In this document: piece by piece, positions 3,001 through 63,800 of the stretch
Position numbering within the stretch: position 1 is the stretch's first letter
Layout: each line of letters starts with the position of its first letter
NCBI GenBank assembly: GCA_026545225.1
Contig: CM048845.1
Span: forward strand, 84,657,033-84,721,032
Direction of reading: 5' to 3'
Source of the DNA: Cornus controversa
Taxonomy: Eukaryota; Streptophyta; Magnoliopsida; Cornales; Cornaceae
Length of the DNA stretch: 64,000 nt
The notes under the pieces: generated by a model
What the model was told of the DNA's origin: nothing
The model's input: the letters and a program-made list of their open reading frames with translations, nothing else
Database searches by the model: none
Program-made: the position numbers and the translations under genes

Positions 3001-6000
3001 GACACAAGGTCAGTGGTCTTCGATTGATCCCTAGATGGATTGAAGTGCCTTGTCCTCCAAATAGGATTTTGGTTTTAAGAAGTTTCCAAAAAACACTTTA
3101 TGCATATTAGAAATGATTTTTATTCATCAAATATGGAAAATTTGAGACCATAATTGATGAGTGCATGAACCCTAATTGGTAAGTGCATATAAGAGTGTCA
3201 AATTCACCTTTTTGCCCTTGAATGTATATTTGCTTTCTGAATTTGCCCTTCAACAAGAGGTAACCAACCAACTAAGTCTCTAACTACCATTTAAGAAAAA
3301 CTATCTCAAAATAAAATAAGATTACAGAGTCAACCTTTTGACATGAAATAAACCCAAGTCCTATTGACCTAACATGAAGCTTGGGTTCTCCAATTCATGA
3401 CTTGAGTTATTGACTATTTGTACAATGCAAAAATGTCTGGCAATAGAAAGCAGTGGTAATTTCATTCAGATGATTTCGTGAAGAACCTTCCCATGTTTGA
3501 TTAACATTGCTCGTGGTAGTATATGTTGTGAGTTCATTTATCAAGAAACTAATATACTTGTTTGCAGATAAACTTTACACAGAATGCATGTGGCAAGTGA
3601 TTACCATATATGATTAACTGAAAATGATAGCATCAATGGAGAAATAAGCTGTTCCTCGCATGAACGCTTTCTAATACAATCTTACTTATAAAAAAAATGG
3701 AGAAATAAGCTGTTAACAATCATCTACTCTAAAAACTTAAGCTGTTAGAGAGGGTGTAACTTTAATATTTAAATCATTCAACGCGTCCCCTCACGTGTGG
3801 CCTTCTTTTGGTCCAACACGTGTTTCAATTTTTAATTATCAAAGTGATGGTGAGGTTTGAACACATGACCTAGCCTGCTCTTATACCATTTGTAACGACC
3901 CGCTCCACCACATGGTATGATATTGTCTGCTTTGGGCCTAGCCCGCATGGTTTTGTTCTTGGGTTTTACCCCCAAAAGGCCTCATACCAATTGGAGAGAA
4001 CACACCACTTACAAGCACATCCCTTTCATCATACCCAGGCGATGTGGGACGTCACAATCACCCCCTCTTGGAACTCAACGTCTTCGGTGACGTCTCCCTC
4101 ATGGGTTTGTGCATGCCATCCGCCACATGTCTAGCTCAGGCTCTGATACCATATTAACAATCATCTACTTTAAAAGTTTAAGCTGTTAGAGAGGGTGAAA
4201 CTTTAATATTTAAATCATTCAACATAAGCCCTTCTCCAAAGAGAGAGAGAGAGAGAGAAGGGGGGGAGGGGTGGTGTGTTGGGGGTGGGGGAACTAACAA
4301 GACACACTTTAGTGCATTTCTGGAACTTCCTCCTTTTGGAAATGTTTATTATTTATTATGTAGGGAAACAGAACTATTAGCTTTGGTAGTCCCTCTTAAA
4401 TCATGCTTCTCTCACAAATTCAATCAGATGCTTCATGTGCCTCTTGTGGAAGACAAGATTGGTTTGCTCAAACAAGTATTCAGCTCAAGTCTTCTATAAA
4501 TTAAGCAGATCTTCACACTCTTTTCATCCCCTTTGAATTGATAGCTTCATTTAGTTTCCCCTTATAATATTGGTATTTTGTAGTTCTTTTTATCTTGTGA
4601 TGGATTTGGTGATCCAAAGGACCTCTTTATTAACTTTGGCTCCTCAGGTACCTGTAGTCACATCTACTTTTCCGGTTGATCGTAGTTGTCAATATTATGA
4701 AGGCTCTTTCCCACACTTCAAAGGATTATCAGATTCAATCATGTATGTCTTATTAACAAATGGGTCAGGTCAATTTTAGTTTCTTTTTATTTGTCGCTTA
4801 CCAATCTCTGCTGCTGATGTTTGTTCATATTGGTGAAAATAGGGTAATGAACGGTATAAATGCTCCAAAGGTGGTCGAATGCCTAGGTTCTGACGGTAAC
4901 AAATATCGACAACTAGCAAAATCTGGAAATGATGACCTGAGACAAGATGCTGTATGAATCCAAACTATGTGCTCTCTCTTTAATTTTCATTTGTGACATC
5001 TAACACTAGAGTGAATATGTTAGATTGAATATTTCAAGGGTGTAATGTGTTTGACTATTATGGAATAAAAGAACGATGGCTGAAGAAGATTATAAGGAAG
5101 GGAACCAAGATAAACCATACTCGGATGAGTAGATTATTAATTTACACTCAACTACAAATGTATGAAGGTAAATCCAAAAGAAAAGAAAATGGAAAAGAAT
5201 GGAAGAAAATAAATCAAAACTATACCCGGATGAGTAGATTATAAAAGAATAAATTCCTCTGAGCTAGTAATATAAGAGAATACAGTTCTAAATTTTACCA
5301 CTTTTGGGAAAGAACGAAGCTCAAACGTAACCGATTTTGGCAATACATATTGCATTACCTCATTCTCCTTTCCATATCCTACTTCCTACATCTCCACCTT
5401 CAGTAAGTCAGACGTTTTGTATACCACCATTTGCATTTTAATTTGTATGTTGCCCACACTTGCTATAATGCATATCAGAAACTCTTATCTTTAAGTTTTC
5501 TAGTGAGGGTATTCCTTATTGTCTTCAGTGGTTGAGAAGTGTACAGTTTAACATGAGTTGATTAAGTATATTCTTTCCTGTTCTATAAGAAGCCCCAATT
5601 TAGTTTGTCTATGCTGACATTGAAATATTGAATGATATGCAGGTAATGGAACAATTTTTTGGTTTGGTTAACACTTTTTTACAGAACCATCGGGATACAT
5701 GGAAAAGGAGATTAGGAATTCGTACATACAAGGTATTATGTATTTCATTTGAGCTGCTTCTTTAATGGAAATCTTGGCTTAAGATTGCAAGACTAATAAA
5801 TTTGGATGGTTTTCTTGATTAGTTGGGCTTTTCTTGGATATGATGACATTGCTTCCTCTAAATAATTTTTTATTGCTTGACTGTATGTATTGGGTTTTGA
5901 ATATCATTTAGAAAGAGTGCATGCATTCCAATGTTCAAACCTCGGCCTTGGCAAATGGGCGGGCTGGGGTCGGGTTTGGACCGGGTCAAATATGGGTTTG

Positions 6001-9000
6001 GACCCATTTTCAACTCACTTGTAGCTGGTCAAATATGGATCGGGTAAAAATGGGCTGTGTCGACCTATCATGACCTGCTTTTTTTTCTTCCCTTTTTCTT
6101 TTTAAAAAAGGGGAGAGAGAGACACATTCTTAAGATTGTTTTAGATTAATTCCATCATTATTTACCGAACAAAATTTGAAACAAAATTTCTTATTAACTA
6201 ATATTTAATGCAAGTTAGTTGAAACAGGTTAACCAAATCCACTTGATCTATGTTGCAACCTTTTTTTGCAGTTCTTTAAATTCTATATAAATTTATGAAA
6301 GTTGAAACTACAAATCCCATGAGCCGTTTACAACGATCCGACCCATTCAAGAACCCGACCCGTTAGAAATACCCGATCTATTGAGGGCAGAAAACCCACT
6401 TGATCCATGTTGCAACTTTTTTTTTTTGACAATTCTTAAATTCTATATTATTTAATGAAAGTTGAAACTACAAATCCCATTAACCATTTATGAGGATCTA
6501 ATCCGGCTACAAGGATCCGACCCATTCAAGAACTCAACCCGTTAGCATGATCCGATCATTTCAAGAACCTTCACTTAAACAATACCAATCCAAACTCATC
6601 ACAACCTAGTTCATTTTGCATTATATATATATATGTTTGTATACACGCATACATACAATTACACACAATACATATAAAGAGAGGAGTTTGAGATGCCCAG
6701 CTTCAGAGGATAAAAAATCAAAAAAGTGGTATCCCCAGAATCACCCAATCGATCACAAATTATTCGAATTATTCAAAAATCTTCAGGACCCAAATCACCA
6801 AATTTCATAAATAATAACCAAATGAATTCAAAAACTTCCATACCCAATTAACCAATAAAGAAAAACTCATTCAAGAACCCATTATATATTATATATTATG
6901 ATAGTTCGGCCGAGGAGGACCCCATCCCCGTGGCCCGCCCGATCACCAACTTCGATATCATCATCGACGCACTCCCATCGAGTCAATCAATGATCTACAC
7001 AAGATTGTGAAGCGGATGGTGGCCGTCGGATTTGGGAAGGAGTGCTCACATGCGTACAATAATTGTCGGGGAGAGTTCTTGGAGGAGAGTTTCTCAAGAC
7101 TAGGGTTACCAACTTTGATATCATTATCGTCGCATTTGCATCAAGTCAATCAATGATCTGCTCGAGATTGCGAAGTGGATAGTGGCCGTCAGATTCGGGA
7201 AGGAGTGCTCACATGCGTATAGTAGTTGTCGAAGAGAGTTTCTCGAGACTAGGGTTATCAAAGCTCAACATCGAAGAGAGAGGACAGAAAGAGGGGGTAG
7301 AAACCGTCAAATCAGAGAGAGAGAGAGAGAGAGGGGCAGCTGTGTCGGTCCAGCTAGGGTTATTGGGACGATCTCTAGCTCTATTAATTTACAGGTTGAA
7401 TATGGGTCCCCATTTCCAATCCAATTTAACACATGAATTTAGGGGTTTATTTTTATCCAACCTGTTTTTGACCCGCACAAAATATTAGTCACCCAAATCC
7501 ATTTATGATTGGGCGGGTTTGGGTGGGTTGGTGGTTCGTGTATAATTTGCCAGGCCTATAACCTATGAAATTATTAACTTCTTTGGATTGTGGCCATCAA
7601 GATTTTGTAATGTGCCTTTAAGTATTCCAATTTACAATTTATCTCATTCTCCCAATATTATTTTAGTTTGGACTTTTACCAAGTTGGGAATGGAAGACAG
7701 TTTCTGGAACAACTTCAAATCGTCTTTCTTTTCCTTGCCTTTTTTCTTGTGTGTGTGTGTTGATTGTGCTTTTTATTTTAAGTACTTGCCTTGAAGTTCA
7801 ATTTTGCAACTTTGTTTCATGGATATGTGATTGCTTCATGATTGTTGCAAATTACCATTGTAGTTTAATTTATCCACTTAAGAAACTCTTGTAAACCTTG
7901 AAGTTGTATGTCAACTTATTTATTTGATCTCTATTAAAGAAAACTTAGCAATAAAATTAGATATGTGGAGAAATTCTTTAGAATCAAAAGGATTGAGAAT
8001 CAGTCGAACTAAAACAGAGTATATGGAGTGTAAATTTTATAAGGACTCAATTCTTGATAATATAATGATAACACTTCAAAGTCAAAAGATGAGTCAAAAT
8101 AACCACTTTTGCTACCCAGGGTCGATAATGCAGAAGCATGGAGAGATAGATAGTGATATAACTAGTAGAATTGGATTCGGATGAACAAAATGGAGACAAG
8201 CTAGTCACTTCTTATGTGATAAAAGAATAACACGGGTTAAAAGGAAAATTTTTACGACCGATATTAGACCAACTATGTTATATGGAGCAGAGTGTTGGGC
8301 TTTAAAAAATAAATAAGAACAACGCATTCATGTTGCGGAAATGAGAATGCGAAGATGGATGATTAGAGTGACTAGAAGAGATAGGGTCACTAATGAAAGT
8401 GTAAAAGAAAAATTAGAAGTGACACCTATCAACAAGAAAATAAGAGAGAGCAGACTTAGATGATTTGGACACAAACAAGAGAGACCTATAAATGCACCGG
8501 TAAGAAGAGAGAAATTAGTTTCTACAGAAGGGAAGTGTAGACCAACTATGTTATATGGAGCAGAGTGTTGGGCTTTAAAAAATAAATAAGAACAATGCAT
8601 TCATGTTGCGGAAATGAGAATGCGAAGATGGATGATTAGAGTGACTAGAAGAGATAGGGTCACTAATGAAAGTGTAAAAGAAAATTAGAATTGACACCTA
8701 TCAACAAGAAAATAAGAGAGAGCAGACTTAGATGGTTTGGACACAAACAAGAGAGACCTATAAATGCATCGGTAAGAAGAGAGAAATTAGTTTCTATATA
8801 AGGGAAGTGGCAGAGAGTGCGACCAAAAATAACGTGAGATGAAGTTATTAGAAAAGACTTTAAAATGTTATACCTATTAGGTGAAATGGCGAGTAATAGA
8901 AAAGAATGGAGAAAGAGAATTCATGTCGCTGACCCTGTTCCTATGGGAATAAGGCAAGGATGATGACGATGATAACGACGACAACGACAATAATCACCGA

Positions 9001-18000: not shown

Positions 18001-21000
18001 CAGCCTCAATTTATAGAGATGGAATGCACAGTCAGCTAATGGATATATAGGCCAGCTGTCCCTGACTTGTCAGGGAATAATCCTGCCGTTGGAGGTGTAA
18101 AATGAAAACTTTGTCCCTCTTTCAACTTTCTAAAAGTGACATAACTACCCTCCAAAATTTAAATTCTGCTGAGCCAATACTAAAAACAGCTGAGACCTTT
18201 TTGTCTCTAGGATTCTTCTGGAATATCATGAGCTGGCACAGCACCTGAAATACCTGCAAAATTACCACTTGAAGGGTTGTTAGTGCACATCCGCTATATA
18301 AGGCTCTATATATATGTAGAACACACACATAAGCTGTCAAAAATGCTTGGAGAGTAAAAATTCAGCAATGCACATTTTCTGAGATGATTCAATATACTGA
18401 CGCACCAACTGAAATTACTAAACTACCCTTGGTATACAGATACAGAAAAATTGTTTGATGAGAAACTCAAAGGGATTTTGCATAGAGCTAAACTAATTCA
18501 CATGCTGCAGAAGCTCCATAGGGACTGATTTTGTCATTAACAAGGCAAACACAACCCTAGGCAATTACTGAACCAAACATAGCCCTAGGACATAGATCAA
18601 CAGTATGCATTGTGTCCTAAGATGGATCATGATATGCATGATTATTTATTCCTTATTGGTGAGTTAGTTATTCAAGAGGTGATTTTACCTTTTTATCCTT
18701 TGTTGTAACTTCAAGTTCGATTCTGCTCTTGGACATAAGTACCACCACAAACTAACTAACTTTTGACAACCTGATCAAAAGCTTAAACAAAAATATGAAC
18801 TCCGGATTTTGTTTTGAAATTTGCATACACTAAGTTCTAATCCTAACAGCCTTGACTCTATGATTAACATCATCTCCAATTTCTCCTTCATTGTGAATAT
18901 TTGAGTCACATCTAAGTTATCCTAACGGACAAAAATTTTGAAAGTACTTTTAGCTTTAGATGTATGAAGAACAGTAAGTTCTAATCCTAACAGCCTTGAC
19001 TCTATGATTAACATCATCTCCAATTTCTCCTTCATTGTGAATATTTGAGTCACATCTAAGTTATCCTAACGGACAAAAATTTTGAAAGTACTTTTAGCTT
19101 TAGATGTATGAAGAACAGTAGAAGATCAAGCTAATTAGTTCAAGGACTTATCATTCCATTAAAGTTGCAATGTGTACATTTTTAAGATGATTTTTGGAGA
19201 GGACAATAATTTTGACAGTAATCCCATGATTTATGCCCCTAGAAATCAAAAGTCTTATTAGAGTTAAAGATCAGATGTTCCATAGTTAATGATTCTGTAA
19301 TTATGTTCTTAAGTGCATCGTAAAAGCAAGATAACATGAGACACAGGGAGTTCAGCTTTGGCTGGTCAAAAAAACATGAATTTTTCTCTAGCCATTATTG
19401 ATTAATGATGTTTTTTTATAAAGGGAAATGCCAAAGTGAAACAACTTGAAGAGGAATGGGAGGGAAAAAGCACTAATTTTACAGAAGTAATGGAAAAACT
19501 TTAGCATTGCTGATTTTTTTTTCCGGTAAAACTTTATTATAGCTGATTTAGTTTGCAGTAAGCTCTCAAAAAAAAAAAAGGAAGAGGAAGGAAATTCTCA
19601 TAACAATTTAGATCTTGTAATCAAAGCTCGTGAAATCACTATGACAAAGAGAATAAAGGGATAACACTTATCTAAGGGATTCAAAAACCTCTCCATTTTT
19701 GAGCTAGTGTGCAAGTGTGTGTGTGTGTGTGCATGAGAGAGAGAGAGAGAGCATATCTCTTTCAGAAATATTTTTCTCTATGCTCAATTCATCATGCATT
19801 AGTCCTATTTTCCCCCAAAAAATGGGATGCTGTCTGGAACCTTAGGAGAACTAGAAACCTTATAAACTTACAGTGAAGTATGGAATCCCCAAAGTCAAAC
19901 GGTTGTTCTTTCTTCCCTGCTCCCTCTTTTTCTACATATGCGGTGGCGGGTTACCAGAGAAGAGGGGACAACTCCTTTCTCATTTGCCTTGCTCAATCTT
20001 CCTTTCTGATTGAAAGTTGCAAGCCACTCCACTACTGCGCCACTGGCACAGAGGCTAGATAGAAGGTTGCTTCTTCTATATGTTCAAGTGAAGAACATCT
20101 GGAAAAAAGAATATGAGAAGAACAAAGAAGAAATTTTGGAATTTCCAAATTAGTTTTCTGGTATCGAAATAAAAAATATTATGTATAACATGATCTGGAT
20201 TCTGGATATATTTGCCGGTATACTAGCCAATTGCGATGTGTTAAATTAATACTAACCAAAGAACTTATATCAGTGCATATGAGGGTTCCCTTATGGTAAC
20301 TTCTGGGTACTTTTATAATTGATCGAGTTTACAGCATTTCTAACCTATGTTCAAACATCAAATTTGACAATTCAAAATGTAAATGGCTAAAGCAGGTGAA
20401 TATTTTAAATATCAATTACCTTAACAGAAACAAACCAAATAATTGTTATGATTCTTTTTTTATTTTATTTTATTTTTTTTGTAGGAACAAAATAAGCGCA
20501 AGGCATTTCAAGAAGTCTGTGAGAACTTCAGGTTTCTATATATACATACATATATATACTTGTAAAAAATACCTAGCCCCAACAATTTAAGCGTATTAGG
20601 TTGAATTTCTTAATTGACATATCTTGCAGGCCTGTTATGCATTATTTTTTCTTAGAGAGATTTTTACACCCAGCTGATTGGTTTGAAAAGAGACTTGCTT
20701 ACACACGAAGTGTGGCAACTAGTTCAATGGTGAGTTTATTGTTCTTTTGAATCTGGAATTCAAGCATGCAATCTCATTTTGCTCAAAGTATCATAGACAT
20801 GAACACTAGACTCAGACATGATAGACATAGGCGCAGCAAAATTTCAAATCTTAAAAAAATCTAGGATAAGAACACAATGTTGACACAGCTATATATATAT
20901 ATATTTAATAAGACTATAAAAAAATCTAGGATAAGAACACAGTGTTGACACAGCTATATATATATATTTAATAAGACTATTCTACAACAAAACAAGTAAA

Positions 21001-25743: not shown

Positions 25744-26409
25744 AATTTCTTTATTTATTTATCTAATATTGAATTTCTTCTTTTCCTTTTCTTTTTTTCT
25801 TCTTGTAAAAGGTGATAAGTGCACTTCAATTTTTTTTATAGATGCACTCCAATTTTAATGTGAAATAATATTATTAATCTTGATTCAATTCATTCGAATA
25901 AGTATAAAGGGCATTTACATCATTTAATTTTAAAAAAAAGTGCTGTTTTAAATAATAACTACATATAAATTGATTTTCTTCACTGTTTTTTCATATTTGT
26001 GACAAAAAAAAATCCACACTTTTTAAATAAATTTCTTTTTGACATGGGTACCAAGAAATATCTATTTCTTACAATAATACTAGTTCGAGACGTGCAACTC
26101 GTCCGTTATATTAAAAGAATTATCCGGCTCACTTCAAATGAAATATATGCCACTGTTGCGTGTGTGTGAATCATTCTTGTATGGTATTATATATATGCGC
26201 CCGTTGTGTGTATAAATGTTTTTAATTAATATTTGCACATATGTTAAAGAGCATTATATATTGTGTAATAATAAAAAGTGAGTTATAATTAATCTTATTT
26301 ATTCTGTGTTGATAAATAAAATAGAGAAGGATTGTGTGACATCTAGAGTATTCATGGATGGATGGATGGAGAGAGAAAGAGCATGTGGCAGCACATATCA
26401 TGACACGTT

Positions 26410-26665
26410 GGATGTTGGGATTTGAAGCCTTCCAAAAGAGTTTTCCTAATCCTTCCAGAGTACGGTAAGAGAGCATATGGCATGACATATGTCATGAGTC
26501 ATATTGGATGTTGGGATTTGAAGCCTTCCAAAAGAGTTTTCCTAATCCTTCCGGAGTACGGTAAGAGAGCATGTGGCATGACATATGACATGAGTCATAC
26601 TGGATGTTGGGATTTGAAGCCTTCCGAAAGAGTTATCCTAATCCTTCAAGATAAAGGTAATGGGT
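26410..26665. repeat. 96-bp direct repeat, about 2.7 copies, upstream of SRO
   Basis: Copies start at 26410, 26506 and 26602 with 'ggatgttgggatttgaagcc'. Copies 1 and 2 each end with 'gtcatgagtcat' or 'gacatgagtcat', which contains TGAGTCA. The third copy diverges after about 55 bp. A partial earlier copy is visible at about 26378-26409. It lies 0.8-1.05 kb upstream of the SRO start codon. Because 96 is a multiple of three, a long reading frame runs through it, but this is not taken as a gene. Confidence 0.88.
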
Positions 26666-41800: not shown

Positions 41801-44800
41801 ATCATCCATATACACAATGAGAGCAACTATCTTACCGCTTGAATGGCGTAATAACAAGGTATGATCAGTTGCGCTATAATGGAAACCAAACTGAAGCATG
41901 GCAAAGAGATCAAATCAAGCTCGAGGAGACTATTTAAGGCCATATAGGAGAGCGAAAGGCCGGAGGGGAACCGTATATACCTCCTCATGTAAGTCATCAT
42001 TGAGAAAGACATTCTTGACATCTAACTGAAATAGTAACCTAGAACGAATTGCAGCATTAGTGATTGTGAGGAGGCTAAGGAGTTCAGGCCTTCTATTATA
42101 CTGAGCCTAAAAAGGGAGGCAAAGGATAATGAATTTGTCATTTATAATGTTGTTGATTGATTTGGAAATTGAGATATTCCAGCAATCTCTAACAAGTACC
42201 TTGATAACAATTACAATATGACTAAGGGTGATCACTTGTATTGTTAATCAACTAATCACTGAAGACTTGAAGCACAAAAGGTGTGAATGAATGTCAAAAG
42301 AGAATGATTTCTACCATTATTGATGATACCATGATGCATGACATGTTTGATAACAATGAAATACTTGGTGGTATTGCATTGGACTATGAAATGTTTCATG
42401 TGTATTCCCATGAAGAAGTAATAGTATCATCCTGAGAAGATTTTAAGGAATATATATCACATGGACATGTATCCAAGATATAAATATATATATGAATGCC
42501 AAAACTAAAGTGTGCATCATGTGTGGTGACATTAATGAATTCTCTATAAACTTAGGGTTGCACCAAGGATCGGTGTTAAGCCCATATCTCTTTGCAATAA
42601 TCTTAGATGAAATAACAAAATACTTTTAAAATGAGATTCCATGGTGCATGATGTTTGCCAATGATATCGTGCTCTTGGATATCTCTAAAGAGAACTTAAT
42701 AATAAAACTAGAAGGGTGGAGAAATGTTTTAGACTTGAAAGGATTGAGAATTAGTCGAACTAAAACTGAGTATATGGAGTGTATATTTAACAATGACTCG
42801 GACATTGATAATATAATGGTAGAACTTCAAAACCAAAAGGTTTCTCAAAACAACTAATTTCGGTATCTAGGATCGATAATACAAAATGATAGAAAGATGG
42901 ATAGCGACATAACTAGTAGAATAGTTGCGGGTTGGACAAAATGGAGGCAAGCTAGTAGGATATTATGTGATAAAAGAATATCACATAAGCTGAAAGAAAA
43001 TTTTCATAGGACCATTATTAGACCAACTATGTTGTATGGGGCGGAGTGTTGGGCCCTAAAAAAGATGACAACAATAAACTAAACTAAACTGCCTAATTAT
43101 ATCATTATCTTCCTCTACCTCATCAATGTCATTATACGTCTTCAATGCCCACAAGGTATGTGCAAATATGTCATTAACATTTACAGTAAAACCTTAATGA
43201 GCTTAAAATCTCACAATTTCCCCAAAATCCCACTTCTTTTTTAATCCACACAAACAAACGCACTGTACACTCCCTCCTTTCCAGCGAGCCATCACTTTCT
43301 TCACAAAAGAGGGGTATTTTCTGAACTAGAGGGGTGTTAAATACACAAATTTTATATAACAGGGTGTTTTCTAAACTTCACCCATTTTGAGTACCCAATA
43401 AAGGGCATTTTTAATTTCAATTACTCATGTGACCAAATTAACGGCCAAAAACAAACGGCTAGCTAATAGAACGTACCAACTCGTACAATTTTTCCAAATC
43501 TATGGGAGTTATTTGCACAATTTGAACTGGAGGGGTGGTGGTAAACGAACAAATTCTATATAACATGAGTGTTTTTTGAACTTAACCCAATATATTTTCC
43601 ACCCAGAGGGAATTGATGCAGGAGTATGCCACTAAAATAAATGAGGTTGAGGTTCATTTAGGTTGGGAAACCTTTTCTGAAGCACCACCAGAGTATGAAG
43701 GGGAAGCAAAAATAAAATTTAAGAAAGAAAAAAAACAAAAAATCACTTCTTCTCTTTAATTGCTATCAATGGGTCACTATGCGGTTCCACCCGTATTGGG
43801 TTTGTGGACTTTCTGGGCTAGATTTGTATTATGTTAGGAACTTCTAATAATGTAGCATCTTTTCACAACTCCACAATTTTGACTTCGTAGCACGTGAGAA
43901 GAACCCTTGTCGTTTCATGACTTATGGTGGCATTTCAGACAATGGGTTTCTATCATATCTTTAGTACCAGTCACCATATCTATATTCTAAAACTCCCAGA
44001 AGCTACATATAAAGCGTTATCAAGTCTGAGGCAAGAAATATGGGCTTGATGTTTTTTTTTTCTGCATGATTTTTTATAAACTTCCAATAATTTATTTACT
44101 ATTTTATGGTTGCTTAATTGCTTGAGAAATGTTAGTTAAATATTCTGTTGGCCCTTTTGTTGAAATATATGTGGTTGTTTTGATTATAGTGGGTTTTTGA
44201 ATATTAATTGCTAATTTTTGGTTTTCTCCAAACTGGTACTTTCTGTTATTACCCTACCGTATTAGTTTGAGATACTTTGCAGACTTTATTATTAATTAAA
44301 ACAGGAGAACACTTTGATGTGGCACTTTCTTTATGTGATCTTATGTTTATATCTAGTTTAAAGACATTATACAATTGGGTCTAATTACTATTTATAACTG
44401 ATGTTTGTTAAACACATGTAAGTACTGTGAACACATGGAAATAGCTTTGTCTGACTATAATTGCATAGTTTCTGTAGTACTATTCAATAAGAGATGCACA
44501 AAAAAAATTATTTGTCATTTTAGTGAAATATGTATGTGTAATTGATTACTAAGATACCTGCTCCCACATCTTGAAATTCTGACTTGAATTCTGCACCTTG
44601 TTTTTGGGAAGTGAGAGGGGGTTCCATTCAAGCTAACTACTGGTTCTATTCAATTGAATGGCAGTTTTTGTTACTTTTCTTTGTTCGTGTTGTATATATA
44701 CTAACCTTTTTTAATTTTCAGCATTAGGGTTTTGGTAAATTTGGCATCTAATACTATGTATTGCACTTGTTTTTATTGTAGGTTGGACTCTAAATTATCA

Positions 44801-45499
44801 TTGAATTCTGATACTGAAGGAATGAAAAGGTGTGGATTTAGCATAGATGGATTGGCCTCTGTAGGTCGTTCAAACAATAATAACACGTCGAAGTCTTTTA
44901 GCACAGGAATGAAAAGAGGAACTGAAGGAATTAAGACATTTGGTCGATCTTTAAGATCTGGAGTCACTCGGGCAGCGTTCCCAGAAGATCTTAAAGGGGC
45001 TGACAGAAAGATATTTGATCCTCAAGACAAGTCTCTCCTACTACTGAATAAGCTTTTGGTCCTATCATGTAGTCTTGCAGTGTCTATGGATCCTTTGTTT
45101 TTTTATCTTCCAGTTTTCGACAGTGATTCATCTTGCCTTGGTTTACATAGAAGTTTAGCACATATAGCTACCACTTTACGGTCAATAATTGATGCTTTCT
45201 ACCTTCTACGCGTGTTTCTCCAGTTCCGTACAGCTTATATTGCACCGTCATCTCGGGTTTTTGGACGAGGTGAACTTGTGATAGATCCTACACAAATAGC
45301 AGAGAGATATTTACGTCGTTATTTCATCATTGATATTCTTTCTGTGCTACCTTTACCACAGGTCTGAAGTTTTACGCTCCCATTGTTTGATTGATTAAGA
45401 GCTTACATACCATGCATGCACATGTTCTTATTAGCGTTTATTGTCTTGAAATAAATGCACGCACACACACACATATATGTATATTACTACATGTATTTA

Positions 45500-45545
<46 letters not shown>

Positions 45546-48500
45546 CCTTAATAATTTTCTACTGGGCCATTATTGGATTAGATACTTTTCCCATGCCATC
45601 ATGCTTGCCATATGATATATTGATTGGTTTTCTTTAGTTACCTGGTCAAACTTATGCTTGCCATATGATATATTGATTGGATTTCTTCAGTTACCTGGTC
45701 CAACTTTTTTTTCCCTATTAAACTTATCTATATCTCCAATATGAAGCAAAATTAATATTTGACAAGTAAATGACCATGAGAGTTTCATCATCTAGTGGTG
45801 GGAATGACTAAATGTGATTAACAAATAAAGTTACTCAGAAGTGTAGAAGTAGCAAGCTTTAAAATTTGATACTGATTCATATGCTCCTCTCCACACACAC
45901 TTTGAGATACATTTTCCTTTATAATTTTTGATAGAACAATGGTGTGCTTGAATGTGCCTTCGTCTTTGCAACATTTTGTTCCTTGAAATCTAGTGGTATA
46001 ATTATATTGTTATTGAATTATATTTCATGTTGAACTAATTACTTCTCCTGTGTTTGTTACATGTGCTTTTTGCATAAAGAATTATTAGTCTCACCTGATG
46101 GGAAGCTTATAGATTTATAGATGTATTTCCCTCTATTAGGTAAATTATTAAATCAAAATTCAGAACAGTGAATTTAAAATGAATTCTCTATGTATATTGT
46201 GTTGGCATATATCTGTTTTTTCTTTATTTTTTAAAATATTTGAACAAAAGGCTTTCTCAACATGCAGATGTTTATGTTATAGTAGTGACTATCTTATGTT
46301 CCCTCTCTATATAATAAGTTACCCTCTATGAGTATTAAATGGTAGATTGACTCATTTCATGATATAGGTGTCAAATGAGCTTATCTATTTATTTATGTCT
46401 TGGGAAGAGTTACCACTGTTAGTGAGGCATGACTAAAAATTGGATAATTTCAGTAAAATCAATTTGTATATTGAACGTTAAAGAGCATTATATAAAATGA
46501 GAAGAGTTTTTGTATTGTTTAACTTCTACTCTCACTTAATTTAGATAATGATTCCCTTTGATTTCCTCACATTCTAGGACTCATAAACCTATATCCATTT
46601 GTATTATGGTGAAATTTAGAGTGGTTCACTGGATATGAATTTGATATTGTTGAAATTATGCTTCAAAGAAAAGAGAACTCACTCCAATATCTTATATATA
46701 TAGACACACACACAAAAGTACAAAAATACCCCTATACGGTAAACTAATTACAAGTGTGCCCTAATATAACTATTCTAACACTTCCCCTCGAGCTGGAGAA
46801 TATATATCATATAATTCCAGCTTGGAATAAATAGCCTTCAACCGATTATAATCGAGAGGCTTAGTGAACTTATCAGCTAATTGATCTTCAAACTTCACAA
46901 ACGGAATAGAGATGTTTCCACTCAATATTTTGTCTCAAATGAAGTGACAGACAACTTCAATTTGCTTAGTCCTTTCGTGGAACAATGGATTAAAAGCAAT
47001 ATGGATTGCTGCTCGATTATCACAAAACAACGGAAGGGGAGTTTGAACTCCAGACCAATTTCTCAAAAGAAATGTCGTAGCCATGTCAACTTACTAGAGG
47101 TGTGAGCCATTACCTTGTACTCAGCTTCAGCATTACACTGTGCTACAACTGTTTGCTTCTTACTATTCAACATAACTAGATTACCTCCTGAGAAGGTGCA
47201 CTATCCTGTAGTGAATCTTTTATCTAAAAGCGAACCAGCCTAAACAGCATGTGTAATACCTTCTACCTTAAAGTGCCCATTAGATTTATAAAACCACCCG
47301 AGACTCGGAGCTCACTTGAGATAAAGGATAATCCGAACAACAACATTCCAATGTGGCACCCTATGAGTTCCCATGAACCGACTCACTACACTAACCGCAT
47401 ACGAGATAACAAGTCTGAGTTTTCCAACGAGTCGTCAAATAAATCACCATCATCATCTACAAGTTTTATGTTTGGATCCACAAGAACATCAACTTGACAA
47501 CCACCTAATAGACCTATTTCTTCTAATAACTCCAGCACATACTTTCTTTAAGACAAACTTATACCTTCCTTCGATCTAGCAACTTCAATTCCCAAAAAAT
47601 ATATGAGTTTAACCAAGTCTTCGGTAAGAAACCGATGTTGTAGAAACTCCTTCAACTTAGCAATGCCTGCAGAGTTATCACCTGTTAAAACAATGTCATC
47701 CATATACACTATAAGAAAAATGAAACATACTCTAGTATGTTGATGAAATACTGAATGATATGTTTGGCATCTGCGAAGACTGAATTCTAATCCTGCCTCA
47801 GAAAATTTGTTAAACAAGGCTCTTAGTGATTGTTTCAAACCACAAAGAGCCTTCTTTAAGTGACAAATACTATGTTGGTACTCCCCCTGAGCAACAAACC
47901 CAGGTGGTTACTCCATGAAGACCTCTTCAGCTAAGTCACCATGTAAGAAAGTATTCATAACATTCAACTGAAACAACTGTCAATTACGATTAGCAGCAAG
48001 AGAAATGAGAACTCAAATAGATGAAATCTTGGCAATAAGTGAAAAAGTCTCATCATAATAAACACCATAAGTCTGTGCGCCCCTTTGCAATAAGTCGAGC
48101 CTTTAAATGCTCAATAGAACCATTAGGAAGGTATTTGATAGTGTAAATTCACTTACAACCAACGGTTTTGGTACCAAGAGGCAAGGAAACAAGATCCCAT
48201 GTCTCATTGCAATAAAAGACATCCATTTCATCTTCTATTACTTTTCTGTATTTCCGATTAGAAAGAGCATCTTACATAGTCTTAGGAACAAGGGTGGTAG
48301 ACAATTAAGATAAAAAATATGAAAAAGAGGGTGATAAGGAATTATATGAGACATTATTGGTAATGAGATGATTAGTGACACAAGAACGAATACATTTACA
48401 AAGGGCAATAGGCGAAGTGTCGGACGTAACAGATGGTGTCAGATCCAAAGACTATGAAAAAAGCTGAGGGGCATGGCAACAAATGGCTTTGATCTCTGAG

Positions 48501-51500: not shown

Positions 51501-54500
51501 TTGTATCTAGATGCTGCTATAAGGGTGTAATATGTGGGTTTGGAGGTTACTAAAATGGGTGTCCATAGATGTTGGGGAAACATGTACTTGGGTGAGAGAT
51601 CTCAGAAATAAGTTTGAAGACGATTTGGATAAGTGGCCATGGTTGGAGATCTTGAATGGAAATTCAACAAAATGAGAGATGGACCAGAACAAGTGAGATA
51701 GGTCTTCACAACGCCAGAGGTGGAAGGATGATTCTGTTGTAGTTTTGCTGAAGAGGGTTGGGGTTTACTTGTGTGTGTGTGTGTGTGTGTGAGTGAGTGA
51801 AAGAGAGAGAGAGGAGAGAGAGGCACTGGTGATCACTGTTCATGATGATTACTCTTCATTGCAAATATTTTCACACTATTCAGTTTTTGTTTAGTTTAAT
51901 AAAATTCAACTTCTCAAAATTTTCTCTTTGTTATTTCTCTTATGATTGTATTGGGTTATTGATTGGATATTAATTATTAGAATATTTGGATTCACATTAG
52001 TTTAACATTCATCCATCATATCATGGGATGGACCGTAAGATTTTTATTACTGCTAGATCTTAAAGGCCACAAAAAGGTGTTTTTCATTTTTTGTTTAATT
52101 TCTGATGATGTGCAGATTGTGGTGTGGAGATTTCTCTATCAATCAAGTAATTCAGATGTATCGTCTACAAAACAGGCACTACTAGTCATTGTCTTTCTTC
52201 AGTATATTCCTAGGTTTCTAAGGTTCTTGCCATTAACTTCAGAGCTGAAAAAGACTGCTGGTGTCTTTGCCGAAACTGCTTGGGCTGGTGCTGCATACTA
52301 TTTGATGTTGTTCGTGCTTGCTAGCCATGTAAGTAGCTGTAATATTGTGTGTACAAGTACAACCATGATAAAGGTTTATAGTTCAGTTTCCTTGCATGGC
52401 TCGTTTTTTATTTTATTGTTTATTTATCTATTTATTTTTTTATCTTAGTCTAGAGATCACATTGTTTGATTCTTTTGTTATTCCTTTTTACAAGGATTCC
52501 AACATAAGCTATTACTGTACATCAAGCAAAACGAATTCTGATAGAGGTGTCATCTGATGAGTCTGAGGCTGAAATAATTGCTAAATCAGTTAAAGAGGCT
52601 TTCCAACACTATTATATTCCTCAAAATGATTGTTATATATATATATCAGGTAAGTACTCACACACACATTGTGTGGTAACCCTTGTGGGCGGGTGTGAGA
52701 CACTAGGCAAGCTACCACACTGGCAGGTTACAGGATACTCAATCTCACATCGTCTGGGTGTGGAGAAGAGGATGTGCTTATATGTAGTGCGTTCTCTCCA
52801 AATGGTATGAGACCTTTTGGGGTAAAATCCAAGATCAAAACCATGCAGAATAGGCCCAAAGCGGATAATATCATACCATGTGGTGGAGCGGGACGTTACA
52901 AATGGTATCAGAGCTGAATCTAGCCAAAAGTGTGCCGACGGGGACGTCGAATGGTATCAGAGCTGGACCTAGCCAGAAGTGTGCCGACGGGGACGTCGAG
53001 GCGAGCTACCACATTGGCAGCTACAGGGTACTCAATCCCACATCGTCTGGGTGTGGAGAATAGGTATGAGGCCTTTCGAGGTAAAATCCAAGATCAAAAC
53101 CGTGCGGGCTAGGCCCAAAACAGACAATATCATACAATGTGGTGGAGCGGGTCGTTACACATTGCCCATCCTAGGGCTCGAACCCCTCCCCTCCTCTTTG
53201 AGGGTGGGTGGTTATAACATTGGATTAGAGACCCTTTGGTAAAATGCTTGTTATATTTAGTTGAAAGTAGTTGCTTTTTGATCTTTTAAATGATTTTTAA
53301 GCCACTGTTGACCAAACAATCTTGCCTCCTAAGAAGTATAGTAAGTAAATTCTTGTATGAGCGGTTTAAAGCATGCCTAATAAGTTATAACAGCATTATG
53401 ATGGTACTTCTTATGGTAACTTCAAGCATCTGCTTCAGGAAATTGTGTGGTATCTGACACTAAGAAAAACCCAAGTGCAGAATGAGCATGTAGGCTAGCA
53501 AAACTGTAATGGGTACATTTCAATTCGTATCTGAAACTCATCAATTCTCCATGGGCATCTAGATGACTCATTAGTTTTTGGGGTTGTTCTTTTCTTAACT
53601 ATTAATATAGATGATAAGTAGCTCATACAAATGCTAGAATAAAGGATTGATCTATTCTAAGCACCATGTACTTGGATATAACATCAATACAGCTTATTTA
53701 TTTGTGAATCTTAAGCACTCCTTGTTCTTTTCCAAGAACTATCAGCTAATATATAATATTGATGATCTTAAGCAGCATATTGAATTCATTTATTAATGTT
53801 ACTTGTAAAATTACAGATAACCGGGGCTTTCTGGTACCTATTTGCCGTGGAACGTACTGATACATGCTGGGAGGATGCTTGTAAAAAAAATGATAAATGC
53901 AAAATAAATTACTTGTATTGCGCAAATCAGGATGTAGCAGGTTATAAAGATTGGGAAAGCATTAGCAAGGATGTTCTTCGCTCAAATTGCTCTGCTGAGG
54001 ATGAAAAAAATCCACCATTTAATTATGGAATCTATAAACAAGCGGTAGCATCTGGAGTTGTTGCATCCGACAATTTCATCTCTAAATACTTTTTCTGTTT
54101 GTGGTGGGGCCTGCAGAATTTGAGGTAAGCTATCTCTTTTCTTCTTCACTTGTTATGATATACAATATGTTCTTTCTCTGGCAATGAGGATGCTTGTTGT
54201 TGGTCTGGGTTTAGACTTGTCAAGTTTCAGCTCAGATAAGCATTTTATTTTCATTAATGAACTTATTTAATATAGATAATGATGTTGCTGGTACTATCAG
54301 TAGATCCATAGATACCCATTCCACTATCCCAGGACTGTCACTTTGCATTCATATTACAGGATTTTGAGACGAGTTTTCTTGGAAGGCAATACAACAAACA
54401 AAAGCCCCGCTGGGGTGGCTTACTTTAGTAGAGTAGTTGTGCTAGGAAAAATCTCGACACTTGACAACTTTAGGAAAAATTCTTCCAAATAAATGTTCCA

Positions 54501-57500
54501 TGTAAAAGGATGATGCTCAAATGGTGAACCATCTTTCAGTTACCTAGTAGCTGGGGAATTGTGGGCTCTTCCTTTGGGACTCCAGTGGATCTTGAAGCTT
54601 TGTCTACCTGGAAAGGATGCAGATAGAACATTAGAGTTAAAGATGTTGGAGTAGCAGTGCCTTTATTCCTGAGTTGGTACATTTGGAAGAATTCAAAGAG
54701 GCACTAGTCCAAAGGGGGGTTGTCTATTTTGAGATGAATGCATATGATGTAAGTTCTCTAGTTTTTTGTGGCCTTTAGGAAGAGAAGAGCTTAGAGTTTT
54801 TGCATAGCTTGTTTTTGTGTATTCACCATGTTTACATGGGATGTGCCTTCTTGAGCACTTTTCAATTAATTACTTTTATTTTCCAAAAACCAATATATGT
54901 GGTAAAGGAATTATTAGGTATGAAAAACTATATTCATTTAAATATATGGGCCCTGGCTAGATTTTCATTAACATAAAAGACGTTTCTATGGAAGAAGTGG
55001 TAAAATTTTGATATTGCAATGGTTACTAGTTAAATATTTGGACATAGATACATTATTCATGTTTGTATAGTGAATGTTTAATACGGATATTAGGCATGTG
55101 TATTATGAGTGTTTAATGCGGGTTAGGCATGGCTTTCACCAGAAAGGTGGCAGAAATTTGAAAGCAATCCGTCTTTAATATTTGGTTGATTGGTTCAAGT
55201 TCTAATTTCCTTACTACTTCCAATCTCTTTCTTATCAAATCCTTTTCTCATTCCTTTTTACAGCCCTCTTACCAGGCAATTCAGTTATGCACCTGTGCAC
55301 TCATTTATGAATGTTAGTACAGTTACAGGCGTTGGTCTGCTCAATGCATTTGAGTGTCCTGAAACTCACTAATTTGATTGGTTTGTATTTTACTTTTCGC
55401 AGTACACTTGGTCAGGGGCTTCTAATTAGTACTTACCCTGGAGAGGCTCTCTTTTCCATAGCAATAGGCATTTTTGGACTGCTCCTATTCGCTCTCCTGA
55501 TTGGTAACATGCAGGTGCGTGCAAAAGGCTTCATAGATGTTGATTTATTTTGGATCAGAAATTTACGTATTCGAGACTGATGAAACCAATGGTGTTGAAT
55601 TATTTTGCACAAAAAAATTTCAACCTGTGCTGATCTTATTAGGGAAATCAGCAGGGGGCAAATGGATTTTGCACATAATAGTGTTGAAAGTTACTCTTAG
55701 GTGCTTGATCCTGAATTCTGGCTTTTATAAAATTTTAATGCATTCTTTGATTCTACACCAAGAATCTCATGGTAGTGACATTACATGATTAACTATTATG
55801 TCAAAATGATGTTGCTGTCATCAAAGAAGACCTGCGTGCCACAAATTTATTTTGCACGTAATCTTGTCACTAGTTATTTTATGTGTCTAATCCTGAACCT
55901 CTGGCTTATAGGAATTTAAGTCATATCTTTATCTAGTTAATTTTATATTAATGGAAGTGAATTAGGTATTAGTAAGTGTAGCTCATACAACAACAGCTGA
56001 TTGTAATGGTTGATTTGTGTTGAAGGATTTATACATTTAAGTTACACTCTCTCTAAAAGCTTAAGCTTTTGAAGTAGATGATTGTTGACATGGTATCAGA
56101 GCCAAAGGTCTCGAGGTCAAACCTCACCGTCACCCTGATAATTAAAATTGAAACACGTGTTGGACTAAAAAAAGGCCACACGTGAGGGGGGGGAAGGGGT
56201 GTTGAAGGATTTATATATTTAAGTTACACTCTCTCTAAAAGCTTAAGCTTTTGGAGTAGATGGTTGTTGACAATTTGCAACCCGGCATTGGAGGTGAGAT
56301 TAACAACAATAGTTGATTGTTGTTTGGTGACACAACATTGTAATTTAAATGATTTAAATAATTTTAATGAGTGAAGAGAAATGGTGGTTCTTTTAATGCA
56401 TGTAAAATGATATGTTCGAACAACGAGGATGTTCATCTTCAATCTAAGAGATTTAAGTCCTTTTTTCCATCCTCATGCTTGAGTTCCTCCTGGGGGCCCT
56501 TGCTTTGTACAATGGTAAAATCTCGGGCTGACAAGTTTTGAGGACCTAGTTTCGAGTGTAAGAGCAGCCGCAATATATTGTCAAATGTCATGTCTGTATT
56601 CAGTTTTCCTCCCATGGCACTCTCCAAAAGCTGGATTAGTACTGGCTTATGGTCTCTGGCCAGGATAACTCTTTGGGGTGCAAGGAAATTCTCGTTTTAT
56701 GGCAGTAGAGAGCAGTGAACGGCAAATTCTATGAATTGTATCCATCAACACTTGCTCGAATTTGGCAAGATATTTCCAAATTTTATGTGAAATGGTGACA
56801 TGGTGTCACTCAATCAATCAATTCTTGTTGTGCAAATGAATGCTTGCTAGCCCACTCACTCTCTCTACTTTTTTTCTCAATCGTTGCACTACACATAGGG
56901 AGAGTGAGTCAATGGGCCAGTACACTTTTGTGTGATAAAATTTATTTGGTTTGTAATACCATGCCAATGAAATGACATGGTGTTCCCATGGCATTGAGCA
57001 TTGACTTGAAATTCGCTCCCACTAGCAATGCACTAACCTGAACTTGTTGAACAGAAACTATTGTTACAATATTGGTGTTTGTTGTAGCAAAATTCTAGAA
57101 GTACTAGCATAGTAGATGCCAAGGGAGGGATGGGGTTAAGAGTTTGAACCTTTCCATCCATATTAATCTTTAAATAAATTATATATATATATATATGTGA
57201 CATTTCTTTTGTACTTATATGAAGTAAAAAGAACATAGTCAGCTTTTGTTCTCAAACCTAATTGGAGGACCAAATCTCTGGTTCAACTACAATATCAGAC
57301 TGTATAACACTACAATAGTAAATATATTCAGAAACTAATGTTTACATTAATATAGATATTTTTTTTTAAGAAGTCAATATAAGTTGATGTTATCTTATTT
57401 CATTGTTTCTTGAAATTGAAACCTCAAAATCTAATTAAAGATGTTCATTGTTTTCTTAACTTGAAACCTCAAGATCTGATTAAACATAGTTTTGTGTTAA

Positions 57501-60290: not shown

Positions 60291-60839
60291 TGAGTTCAAA
60301 TCTTAGTGTCGCCTAATATAAAAAATACGTGGAGATCACATGTAAAGAAATATTTTACACCCTCTTCATGGCATCTTAAACTTAAGGACATGGTAATTAA
60401 AATAGCATCAGAGCACGTTTTTGATTCCAGTGTCATGCATATTTACTATACTAAAAATACTAAAAATGTGAGCCAACAGTGAAAATAAAAGGCATCATTT
60501 GTGACGTATACCATTAAAGTTGCCTGGTGAAAATAGCATCAGAGCATGTTTTCGATGGACCAGGATCCTCTACAGTAATCGGTACATGCGATAATTGTGC
60601 TGTAATCCGAAAATAATAAAATATTATTATCTTCCCTTCTATCTCTCAGGGTATATATATATATATATATAATTCTTTTTATTCCTTTCATTTAAAAGTC
60701 CATAAATTCTCTTGCAATTGAAATTTTTTGATAAAACAATTTTTGCTCAATAGAACATCATGAGAGTTTCAATTTGAGTACCACTTAAATTATATTTTAA
60801 TTTTAAAAAAAATGGGATATGATTTTACCAAATCATGTC

Positions 60840-63800
60840 CATACAATTAAAGTCATTTTCACACCATCAAAGTTATTTTACACACAATTAAAGTGTTTTC
60901 GCACAAACTTAAAACATATACATTTTAATATTTTTTAAATATGTTTCTTAAAATATTGTGTCTAAATGTTTTTAAAAAAATTGAAAAGAAAAAATATAAA
61001 AATTTATTTATTTTCTTACATGTGCTAAAAATTACTTTAAATGTGTGAAAATATAATTTAAGTGTGTGGAAATTGATTTTAAGTGTGCGTAAGTGAGGCT
61101 TAAAAATATGAACATCAACTGCTATAATTTATTTGTATGCAAACATCCTTTTTAAGTGTGCCCAAAAGTTTCTAAAAATTTGGAAAGAAAAAACATAAAA
61201 AATTATTTATTTTCGGTGTGTGTAAAATTATATTGTGTGTAAAAATTTACTTTAAATGTGTGTAAATGTACTTTACGTGTGTGAAAAGTTATTTTAAGTG
61301 TGTGGAAGTGACGTTTCAAAATGTGAACATCAACAATTATGATTTATTTATGTGCAAACATACTTTATGTGTGCCCAAATGCTGCTAAAATCATAATAAT
61401 TGATGTTCACATTTTTAAGCATCACTTCTCCACATTTAAAGTCATTTTTCACACACTTAATGTATATTTCCACACATTTAAAGTCATTTTTTAAGACTCG
61501 TTGTAATAATTGTTTCCACACATATAAAACATAACATTTGATTTTCACATTTTTTAAGACTCATGTCCACGAACTTAAAGGTCTTTTTCACACATTTAAA
61601 GTCATTTTTGACACAGTTAAAATATTATTCCACACACTAAAAATATATAATTTTTTTTGTTTTTTCTTTCAAAAAATTTCAGAAACATTTAGACACATAC
61701 AATAAGTGTTTCCACACAAATAAAAAATAACATTTCATTTTCACATTTTTTAAGACACATGTCCACGAACTTAAAGACCGTTTCTACACATTTAAAGTAT
61801 TATTCCACACACTTAAAGTATTATTCGACACACAGAAAATTTATCATTTTGTATGTTTTTTCTTTTCAATTTTTTCAGAAACATTTAGACACATCCAATA
61901 AGTCACAAATAAAACATAACATTTGATTTTCTCACTTTTCAAGACTCATGTCCACGAACTTAAAGGCACTTTCCACACATTTAAAGTCCTTTTCGACACA
62001 GTTAAAGTACTATTCCACACACTGAAAATATATAAGTTTTTATGTTTTTTCTTCCCAAATTTTTCAGAAACATTTAGACACATCCAATAAATGTTTCCAC
62101 ACAAATAAAAAAATAACATTTGATTTTCAAATTTTTAAGACTCATGTCCACGAACTTAAAGGCCCTTTCCACACATTTAAAGTATTATTCCACACAAGTA
62201 TTATTCCACACACTGAAAATTTATCATTTTGTATATTTTTTCTTTTAAATTTTTTCATAAACATTTAGATATATCCAATAAGTGTTTCCACACAAATACA
62301 AAAATATATTTGATTTCCACATTTTTTAAGACTCATGTCCCCGAACTTAGAGGCCACTTTCACATATTTAAAGTATTATTCCACACACTTTCCACCCACT
62401 GAAAATTTATCATTTTGTATGTTTCTTCTTTTAAATTTTTTCAGAAACATCCAATAAGTGTTTCCACACAAATAAAAAATAACGCTTGATTTCAACATTT
62501 TTTAAGACTCGTGTCCATGACCTTAAAGGCCATTTCCACACATTTAAAATATTATTCCACACACTTAAAGTATTATTCCACACACTTGAAATTTATCAAT
62601 TTGTATGTTTTTTCTTATCAATTTTTTCATAAACATTTACACGCATCCAAGAAGTGTTTCCACACAAATAAAACATAACATTTGATTTTCTCATTTTTTA
62701 AGAATCATGTCCACGAACTTAAAGGCCCTTTCCACACATTTAAAGTCATTTTCGACACAATTAAAGTATTATTTCACACACACAAAATATATAATTTTTT
62801 ATGTTTTTTTTTTTTTCAAATTTTTCAGAAACATTTAAACACATCTAATAAGTGTTTCCACACAAATAAAACATAACATTTGATTTTATCATTTTTAAGA
62901 ATCATGTCCACGAACTTAAAGGTCATTTTCACACATTTAAAGTCATTTTCGACACAGTTAAAGCAATATTTGACACACAGAAAATATATAATTTTTTATG
63001 CTTTTTTTTTCAATTTTTCAAAAACATTTAGACACATCCAATAAGTGTTTCCACGCAACTAAAACATAACATTTGATTTCCACATTTTTTAAGACTCATG
63101 TCCACAAACTTAAAGGCCTTTTTCTACACATTTAAAGTATTATTCTACACACTTAAAGTATTATTCCACGCACTGAAAATATTTAATTTTATATGTGTTT
63201 TTTTAAATTTTCAGACACATTTAGACACATCCAATAAGTGTTTCCAAACAAAACATTTGATTTCCTCATTTTTTAAGATTCATGTTCACGAACTTAAAGG
63301 CCCTTTCCACACATTTAAATTAATTTTCCATGCACTTAAAGTAATTTTCCATGCACAAAAATTAAATAATTTTTTATGTTTTTCTTTCTAATTTTTTTAA
63401 CAGATTTTAGCCACATTTGAAGGATGTTTTCACACAAATAAATCATAACAATTTATATTCACATTTTAAAGTCTCATTTCTACTCACTTTCCACATACTT
63501 AAAGTACATTTTCACACATTTAAAGTAATTTTCCACACACTTAAAATAATTTTCCACTCACTGAAAATAGATAATTTTTTATGTTTTTTCTTTCTAATTT
63601 TTTTAACAACTTTTAGACACACTTGAATGATATTTTCACACAAATAGATCATAATAATTAATTACCACATTTTTAAACGGCATTTCTATTCACATTTTAA
63701 AGTCTCGTTTCTACTCACTTTCCACATACTTAAAGTACATTTCCACACCTTTAAAGTACTTTTCCACACACTTAAAGTAATTTTTCACGTTCGGAAAAAA

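What the first reader, a model, noticed from the sequence alone, without database searches (positions are those of the whole stretch)
3711..4224. Chimeric TRIM: family-A LTRs around a family-B LTR with its own primer-binding and polypurine motifs
Read on the minus strand the order is: A-LTR, primer-binding site, B-type internal sequence, polypurine tract, B-LTR, decayed primer-binding site, A-type internal sequence, polypurine tract, A-LTR. The whole is enclosed by one exact TAAGC duplication, so it inserted as a single unit. A nested insertion would give two B LTRs or a B target duplication; neither is seen. This fits template switching between two co-packaged TRIM RNAs during reverse transcription, or B solo-LTR formation followed by mobilisation. 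Recombinant TRIMs of this layout would show how such tiny elements diversify.
Basis: partly seen in the sequence, partly recalled or inferred. Interest (0 to 1): 0.72.

Follow-up and report, generated by a model that had tools for sequence, protein, structure and literature searches.

The report
Two-family miniature retrotransposon joined at PBS
A half-kilobase plant jumping element here is a hybrid of two unrelated miniature retrotransposons, spliced exactly at the short site they share for starting DNA copying; this suggests that such elements can swap parts while being copied.

Summary
The layout is real. Read on the minus strand, 3711-4224 is A-LTR, PBS, B internal, PPT, B-LTR, decayed PBS, A internal, PPT, A-LTR, with exact TAAGC outside and no duplication around the B-LTR. 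Both A/B joins fall inside the 12-bp PBS, the only same-strand exact word of 9 bp or more shared by the pure A and pure B copies compared. Other loci show such joins: a decayed A-B-A (L001), a B-A-C (L002), a complete C-B-C with exact ACTGA (L021). Over 75 fetched loci plus the window, type switches are 14 of 86 typed LTR-to-internal (PBS-side) joins and 0 of 108 internal-to-LTR (PPT-side) joins; only five involve A, in three loci. Best reading: reverse transcription jumped from one RNA's PBS to another's. DNA recombination at the PBS after insertion is not excluded: the outer duplication would survive it. No close copy of the B-to-A junction appeared. A heterotypic form of known tandem TRIMs.

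The parts
4225..4229 (.). target-site duplication TAAGC (element's 5' side, minus-strand reading)
   Evidence: direct reading; exact match
4152..4224 (-). A-family 5' LTR, 73 bp (inner end TA)
   Evidence: 67/73 identical to 3783-3711; 62/73 to pure A LTR 56018-56090
4140..4151 (-). PBS TGGTATCAGAGC; A-to-B join lies within it
   Evidence: exact match; flanked by A LTR and B internal
4057..4139 (-). B-type internal region ending in polypurine tract AAGAGGGGGTGAT (5 bp shorter than in L003)
   Evidence: PBS+internal+LTR block 82-90% identical to 41 of 52 other B blocks, 71-82% to the other 11
3891..4056 (-). complete B-family LTR, 166 bp, TG..CA, no flanking duplication
   Evidence: 149/165 and 150/165 identical to the two LTRs of B element L003
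3877..3888 (-). second, decayed PBS TGGTATAAGAGC preceded by spacer AA (3889-3890); B-to-A join lies within it
3784..3876 (-). A-type internal region with polypurine end
   Evidence: with its PBS, 90/108 aligned sites identical to pure A
3711..3783 (-). A-family 3' LTR, 73 bp (begins CG)
   Evidence: 63/73 to pure A LTR 56200-56272
3706..3710 (.). target-site duplication TAAGC (other copy)
56018..56272 (+). pure A element, 255 bp, duplication ATTTG (comparator)

Best explanation
It is a single non-autonomous TRIM insertion built from two families during reverse transcription. Inferred steps: A and B RNAs were packaged in one particle. Minus-strand DNA was started on A, made the normal jump at R, and copied A's U3, PPT and internal region to the PBS, where its template ends. 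There the nascent end paired with the identical PBS of a B RNA and went on through B's U5 and R, made a second ordinary R-to-R jump, and copied B's U3, PPT and internal region to the PBS. A's plus-strand strong-stop DNA (A LTR plus PBS) then paired with that terminal PBS in the usual second transfer. This gives A-LTR/PBS/B-int/PPT/B-LTR/PBS/A-int/PPT/A-LTR with unmixed LTRs. Shown here: the order of parts, joins confined to the PBS, outer LTRs of one family, one outer duplication, PBS-side joins between other partners. Not shown: co-packaging, the RNA intermediates, and whether the join came before or after insertion.
For: Both A/B joins lie inside the 12-bp PBS with no visible loss of bases. 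The PBS holds the only same-strand exact word of 9 bp or more shared by pure A (L041) and pure B (L003). Over L001-L075 plus the window, type switches are 14 of 86 typed LTR-to-internal joins against 0 of 108 typed internal-to-LTR joins, Fisher P 6e-6 (13 and 7 untyped joins left out); without the window's own three PBS-side joins, 12 of 83, P 3e-5. L021 has the same layout with other partners: C-B-C, 778 bp, exact duplication ACTGA, both outer LTRs of one C subtype (191/228 identical). L015 is C-LTR/PBS/B-int/B-LTR with exact TCATG, as a second transfer in trans would give. Precedent: template-switch complexes in grasses (PMC1950507, whole text) and template switching by Tnt1 in tobacco cells (PMC2923131, passages).
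Against: The outer duplication and same-family outer LTRs would also survive a DNA exchange after insertion. The two outer A LTRs (67/73) are not each other's unique best match: of 69 other A LTRs compared, 1 is at least as close to the 5' one and 9 to the 3' one, so their likeness says little about one copying cycle. No close copy of the B-to-A junction was found, so nothing shows that the composite moved as a unit (40 of 376 candidates scored). Nine of the 14 switches are B/C, which share about 145 bp of LTR, so ordinary recombination could explain those. The five that involve A lie in three loci, the window, L001 and L002, and the last two were fetched because they resemble the window element. 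L024/L029 look like a duplicated pair. L002 (B-A-C) has different outer LTRs and a truncated 5' end, which the simple model does not predict. No A/B or A/C switch was seen in the 38 A-rich loci. The A-to-B junction was never searched genome-wide (tool unanswered).
Confidence: 0.55

Rival explanations
1. DNA recombination after insertion: a plain A element (TAAGC) later took up a B one-LTR circle, or exchanged with a B tandem array, by a crossover or microhomology repair at the PBS.
For: A one-LTR circle opened at the PBS is exactly PBS-int-PPT-LTR, and TAAGC would be kept. B arrays of three or more LTRs occur at several fetched loci (e.g. L005, L012, L014, L027, L036). The authors of the maize Wukong paper explain its multi-LTR TRIMs by recombination (PMC4528315, passages). 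The outer A LTRs are no closer to each other than to some other A copies.
Against: A and B share only about 12-13 bp, short for homologous exchange. PBS-side joins recur with different partners, and none of 108 typed PPT-side joins is switched.
Confidence: 0.29
2. Heterodimer by R-to-R jumps between two RNAs, as proposed for Triticeae complexes.
For: Same gross order: three LTRs, two internals, outer duplication, similar outer LTRs (PMC1950507, whole text).
Against: That route makes every LTR a U3/U5 hybrid of the two parents. Here the outer LTRs are A-like and the inner LTR B-like to their last bases. It survives only if R ends almost at the LTR end; R and U5 were not mapped.
Confidence: 0.06
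3. Nested B insertion in A at the PBS, then deletion down to internal plus one LTR (or a nested solo LTR).
For: Intact A elements without the B block exist (33 typed). The AA before the second PBS need not be B's: of 23 A-type LTR ends read just before a PBS, 20 end CA, 2 AA and 1 TA, so AATGG could rarely be A sequence.
Against: No duplication around the B LTR. It needs an insertion exactly at the PBS plus a deletion between short repeats, and the same again for L001 and L021.
Confidence: 0.07
4. Assembly error or chance adjacency.
For: None found.
Against: 514 bp inside a 129-Mb contig, exact outer duplication, and other loci with the same kind of join.
Confidence: 0.02

Closest known systems
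Tandemly arrayed TRIMs (TA-TRIM, L3I2) of Gao et al. 2016, PMC4717578
   Same: [quoted passage not shown] common in plants (129 subfamilies, 35 of 43 genomes; section 8 read).
   Different: The arrays described there are given per subfamily; here the middle unit is a different family with no similarity outside the PBS. I saw no mixed-family array in the sections (8, 18, 22) and passages that I read.
Template-switching LTR-retrotransposon complexes, Sabot and Schulman 2007, PMC1950507
   Same: Internal LTR, two cores, flanking duplication, similar outer LTRs, read as a co-packaged RNA heterodimer.
   Different: Complexes within large families (Angela-like, Squiq, Opie) joined at R; here unrelated miniature families joined at the PBS with unmixed LTRs.
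Intra-family recombination of ONSEN in Arabidopsis, PMC5668417 (abstract and outline only)
   Same: Retrotransposon family members recombine pairwise during bursts.
   Different: Members of one family; no three-LTR product is mentioned in the abstract.
Cassandra tandem arrays, PMC7215508 (passages)
   Same: TRIM concatemers; the authors offer recombination or template switching.
   Different: One family, carrying 5S rRNA-like LTRs.
OsajLTRA10 / OsajRetroS10 'duplicated internal sequence', PMC4717578 section 18
   Same: A 25-bp stretch containing TGGTATCAGAGCC (PBS-like) is duplicated at the breakpoint between a TRIM and a larger element, recalling a PBS-located join.
   Different: TRIM and a coding copia element, not two TRIMs; the link is my inference.

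Membership tests
[quoted passage not shown]
   73-bp LTRs, 67/73 identical; outer ends TG..CA, but the inner edge of the 3' LTR reads CG and that of the 5' LTR TA. Shorter than the 100-250 bp I recall as typical
[quoted passage not shown]
   exact PBS at 4151-4140; GAGGGG tract before the 3' LTR
[quoted passage not shown]
   TAAGC both sides
[quoted passage not shown]
   no stop-to-stop frame of 90 aa or more lies inside; one (4182-4496) overlaps by 43 bp and has no Pfam match
TA-TRIM (L3I2) | three LTRs and two internals, head to tail | tested here: met
TA-TRIM (L3I2) | all units of the same TRIM subfamily (implied by the per-subfamily description, not stated as a rule) | tested here: not met
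   middle LTR and first internal are B, the rest A
Template-switching complex (Sabot and Schulman) | internal LTR, two cores, flanking duplication, similar outer LTRs | tested here: met
   criteria from PMC1950507. Outer LTRs 67/73, not unique best matches
Template-switching complex (Sabot and Schulman) | chimeric (U3/U5 hybrid) LTRs from an R-region switch | tested here: not met
   LTRs unmixed to their last bases; R/U5 borders not mapped
Nested solo LTR | own 5-bp duplication and host sequence on both sides | tested here: not met
   GTGAT/AATGG flanks; B internal on one side
Product of co-packaged RNA recombination | two RNAs in one particle | not testable with these tools
   needs particle RNA or new-insertion experiments

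The most novel reading that the evidence does not exclude
The shared tRNA-Met primer-binding site is a general exchange joint. TRIM families with no other similarity form one recombining pool whose [internal-PPT-LTR] cassettes are strung together at the PBS during reverse transcription, giving XYX hetero-trimers and mixed-LTR elements that insert as units. The same route would explain why tandem TRIMs are so common and how new TRIM combinations arise.
Probability: 0.33. Interest if true: 0.62.

Novelty: new variant of a known kind. Interest (0 to 1): 0.44.

Why it matters
How non-coding TRIMs form tandem arrays is explained in the papers seen here by DNA recombination or by template switching. 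Joins between unrelated families can be located to within a dozen bases, which homotypic arrays do not allow. Here they point to one site, the PBS, and the contrast of 14 of 86 against 0 of 108 is a pattern that can be tested in other plant genomes. If it holds, sharing a tRNA primer site would be enough for unrelated elements to recombine.

Tried and rejected
Nested solo LTR: rejected in its plain form (no B duplication, one-sided B internal); a two-step nested route is kept as a weak rival. R-region heterodimer: disfavoured, LTRs unmixed. Treating 52672-53159 as family B: rejected, it is type C. Mobile A-B-A family: not supported; the 71-bp B-to-A junction query gave no other full-length match in 40 of 376 candidates scored, and the two 60-of-71 hits are C-type LTRs of a gypsy-like element. 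Outer LTRs as each other's closest kin: tested and not borne out. Tree of 53 B blocks to test common descent of the window and L001 blocks: mostly unresolved (29 of 50 inner branches open), no conclusion. Searches that led nowhere: exact patterns in viral contigs and genome contigs, plasmids, phages, Rfam and tRNA scans. Paper searches returned capped lists (8 to 20 rows each), of which I saw titles and abstract starts; no listed row names a mixed-family TRIM array. Yin 2014 and Maiwald 2021 were not held.

Full report
WHAT WAS CLAIMED AND WHAT IS THERE. Reading and alignment confirm it. On the minus strand: A 5' LTR 4224-4152; PBS TGGTATCAGAGC 4151-4140; B-type internal 4139-4057 with a purine tract at its end; B LTR 4056-3891; spacer AA and decayed PBS TGGTATAAGAGC 3888-3877; A-type internal 3876-3784; A 3' LTR 3783-3711. 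TAAGC stands on both outer sides. The B LTR has no duplication (GTGAT/AATGG). The outer LTRs are 67/73 identical to each other and 62-63/73 to the window's pure A element. Against 69 other A LTRs in fetched loci and the window, however, 1 is at least as close to the 5' LTR and 9 to the 3' LTR, so this likeness is no more than family-level.

CORRECTION OF THE FAMILIES. The genome search (answered) placed the window in an unnamed 771.7-Mb assembly (C1, 129 Mb) and gave 118 matches, 40 of 5750 candidates being scored. By my grouping these lie in the window and 37 other loci; all 37 were fetched. Typing of modules shows three kinds: A (about 250 bp, 73-bp LTRs), B (432 bp in L003 with duplication TAGCA, 165-bp LTRs), and C (about 230-bp LTRs that share about their last 145 bp with B, with their own head and internal). 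The chimera's PBS+internal+LTR block is 88.7% identical to L003, and 82-90% to 41 of 52 other B blocks.

THE JOINS. Both A/B joins are confined to the 12-bp PBS: everything 5' of it is one family and everything 3' of it the other. A pure A (L041) and a pure B (L003) share no same-strand exact word of 9 bp or more except ATGGTATCAG in the PBS. Of 23 A-type LTR ends read just before a PBS, 20 end CA, 2 AA and 1 TA, so the AA before the second PBS fits B but is not proof.

OTHER CASES. L001 holds a second, decayed A-LTR/PBS/B-int/B-LTR/PBS/A-int order, with further rearranged A pieces, a deletion, and no clean outer duplication. L002 is B/C-type LTR (head missing)/PBS/A-int/A-LTR/PBS/C-int/C-LTR. 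L021 is a complete C-B-C of 778 bp with exact duplication ACTGA; its outer LTRs are 191/228 identical and of one C subtype by eye. L015 is C-LTR/PBS/B-int/B-LTR with exact duplication TCATG, so its two LTRs differ in family. Of the 37 B-rich loci, 2 show a switch involving A and 8 a typed B/C switch (L010, L015, L019, L021, L024, L029, L031, L037; L024 and L029 are near neighbours with nearly the same sequence). These loci were the best matches to the chimera, not a random sample. From the A-rich search (40 of 3648 candidates scored) I fetched 38 further loci: 0 of 38 show a typed switch. Among 33 two-LTR A elements (window's pure A included), 18 have an exact 5-bp duplication, allowing 3 bp of slack at each end.

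A COUNT THAT BEARS ON MECHANISM. Over L001-L075 and the window, LTR-to-internal joins: 72 same type, 14 switched, 13 untyped. Internal-to-LTR joins: 108 same type, 0 switched, 7 untyped; Fisher P 6e-6 on typed joins. Without the window's own three PBS-side joins it is 12 of 83, P 3e-5, the 108 being left as they were. Limits: the reference modules come from these same loci, loci are not all independent (L024/L029), nine of the 14 switches are B/C and could arise anywhere in their shared LTR part, and a broken PPT/LTR border may be selected against. The five switches that involve A (two in the window, two in L001, one in L002) cannot be explained by shared LTR sequence, but L001 and L002 were found by their likeness to the window element.

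MECHANISM. The place of the joins is more telling. In reverse transcription the PBS is where the minus strand reaches the end of its template and where the plus-strand strong-stop DNA is transferred (general knowledge of LTR retrotransposons). A jump from A's PBS to B's PBS, a second R-to-R jump, and the ordinary second transfer give exactly this order with unmixed LTRs. The published R-region heterodimer (PMC1950507, read whole) gives U3/U5-hybrid LTRs, which are not seen. Tnt1 in tobacco is reported to use more than one RNA per cDNA (PMC2923131, passages). L015 fits a second transfer in trans; L002, with different outer LTRs and a lost 5' head, is not explained by the simple form of the model. 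I put the reverse-transcription reading at 0.55 and DNA recombination at 0.29.

WAS THE COMPOSITE MOBILE? The 71-bp query across the B-to-A junction matched fully only at the window; 40 of 376 candidates were scored, and L001 and L002 were not among those listed. So there is no close second copy of that junction at this sensitivity. The A-to-B junction search did not complete.

KNOWN OR NEW. Tandem TRIMs with three LTRs and an outer duplication are common (PMC4717578, section 8), and recombinant retrotransposons are well known (PMC5668417, abstract; PMC7215508, passages). I found no description of arrays that mix unrelated TRIM families at the PBS in the capped lists of searches; the library lacks most subscription papers, and two likely papers (Yin 2014, Maiwald 2021) were not held. 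I rate it a new variant of a known kind.

SIDE FINDING. The two 60-of-71 hits led to C-type LTRs followed by the same PBS and a gag-pol region. Stop-to-stop pieces of one copy match RVT_1, RNase H, integrase zinc-binding, aspartyl protease, Tf2-like SH3 and, below cut-off, chromo domains. In the opposite copy, whose internal part is 93% identical over about 4.5 kb, a C-type LTR lies at each end about 6.4 kb apart (3' LTR 87-89% identical over 223-225 bp to the two C LTRs of L076). C TRIMs therefore seem to have a coding Ty3/gypsy relative here. Gao et al. found only Ty1-copia relatives in six flowering plants (PMC4717578 section 22); that this plant is a flowering plant was not established. 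Whether A uses the same proteins is unknown.

Noticed in passing
L076 449-682 (-) through L079 608-859 (-), and L076 1367-1596 (+) into L077: C-type TRIM LTRs bound a ~6.4-kb Ty3/gypsy-like element (RVT_1, RNase H, integrase zinc-binding, sub-threshold chromo domain): a candidate helper for C/B TRIMs, unlike the Ty1-copia relatives reported for flowering plants (host clade not established).
   Followed up: partly
L001 about 1226-1622 (read on the minus strand): An A LTR and PBS followed by an internal region that matched no module, then an inverted A piece whose reversed PBS abuts a sense A LTR: perhaps a further, inverted PBS-located join and a fourth internal type.
   Followed up: no
window 3635-3653 and 3696-3714: A 19-bp exact direct repeat AATGGAGAAATAAGCTGTT whose second copy includes TAAGC and the first four bases of the element, although those four should not predate the insertion.
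   Followed up: no
L049 and L070: Both A elements carry duplication TAAGT and a nearby B fragment, suggesting a copied segment on two contigs.
   Followed up: no
window 8265-8809, 18827-19120, 26378-26660, 60818-63989: Local repeats spaced by 92-273 bp (273-bp pair at 97%, 150-bp pair at 99%) and a dense set of ~50-135-bp repeats near the end of the window.
   Followed up: no
window 44705-45364, 59059-59793 (+): Frames with an Ion_trans match (below cut-off) and a cyclic-nucleotide-binding match, as in a plant cyclic nucleotide-gated channel gene; a copia RVT_2 fragment at 47551-47907 (-).
   Followed up: no
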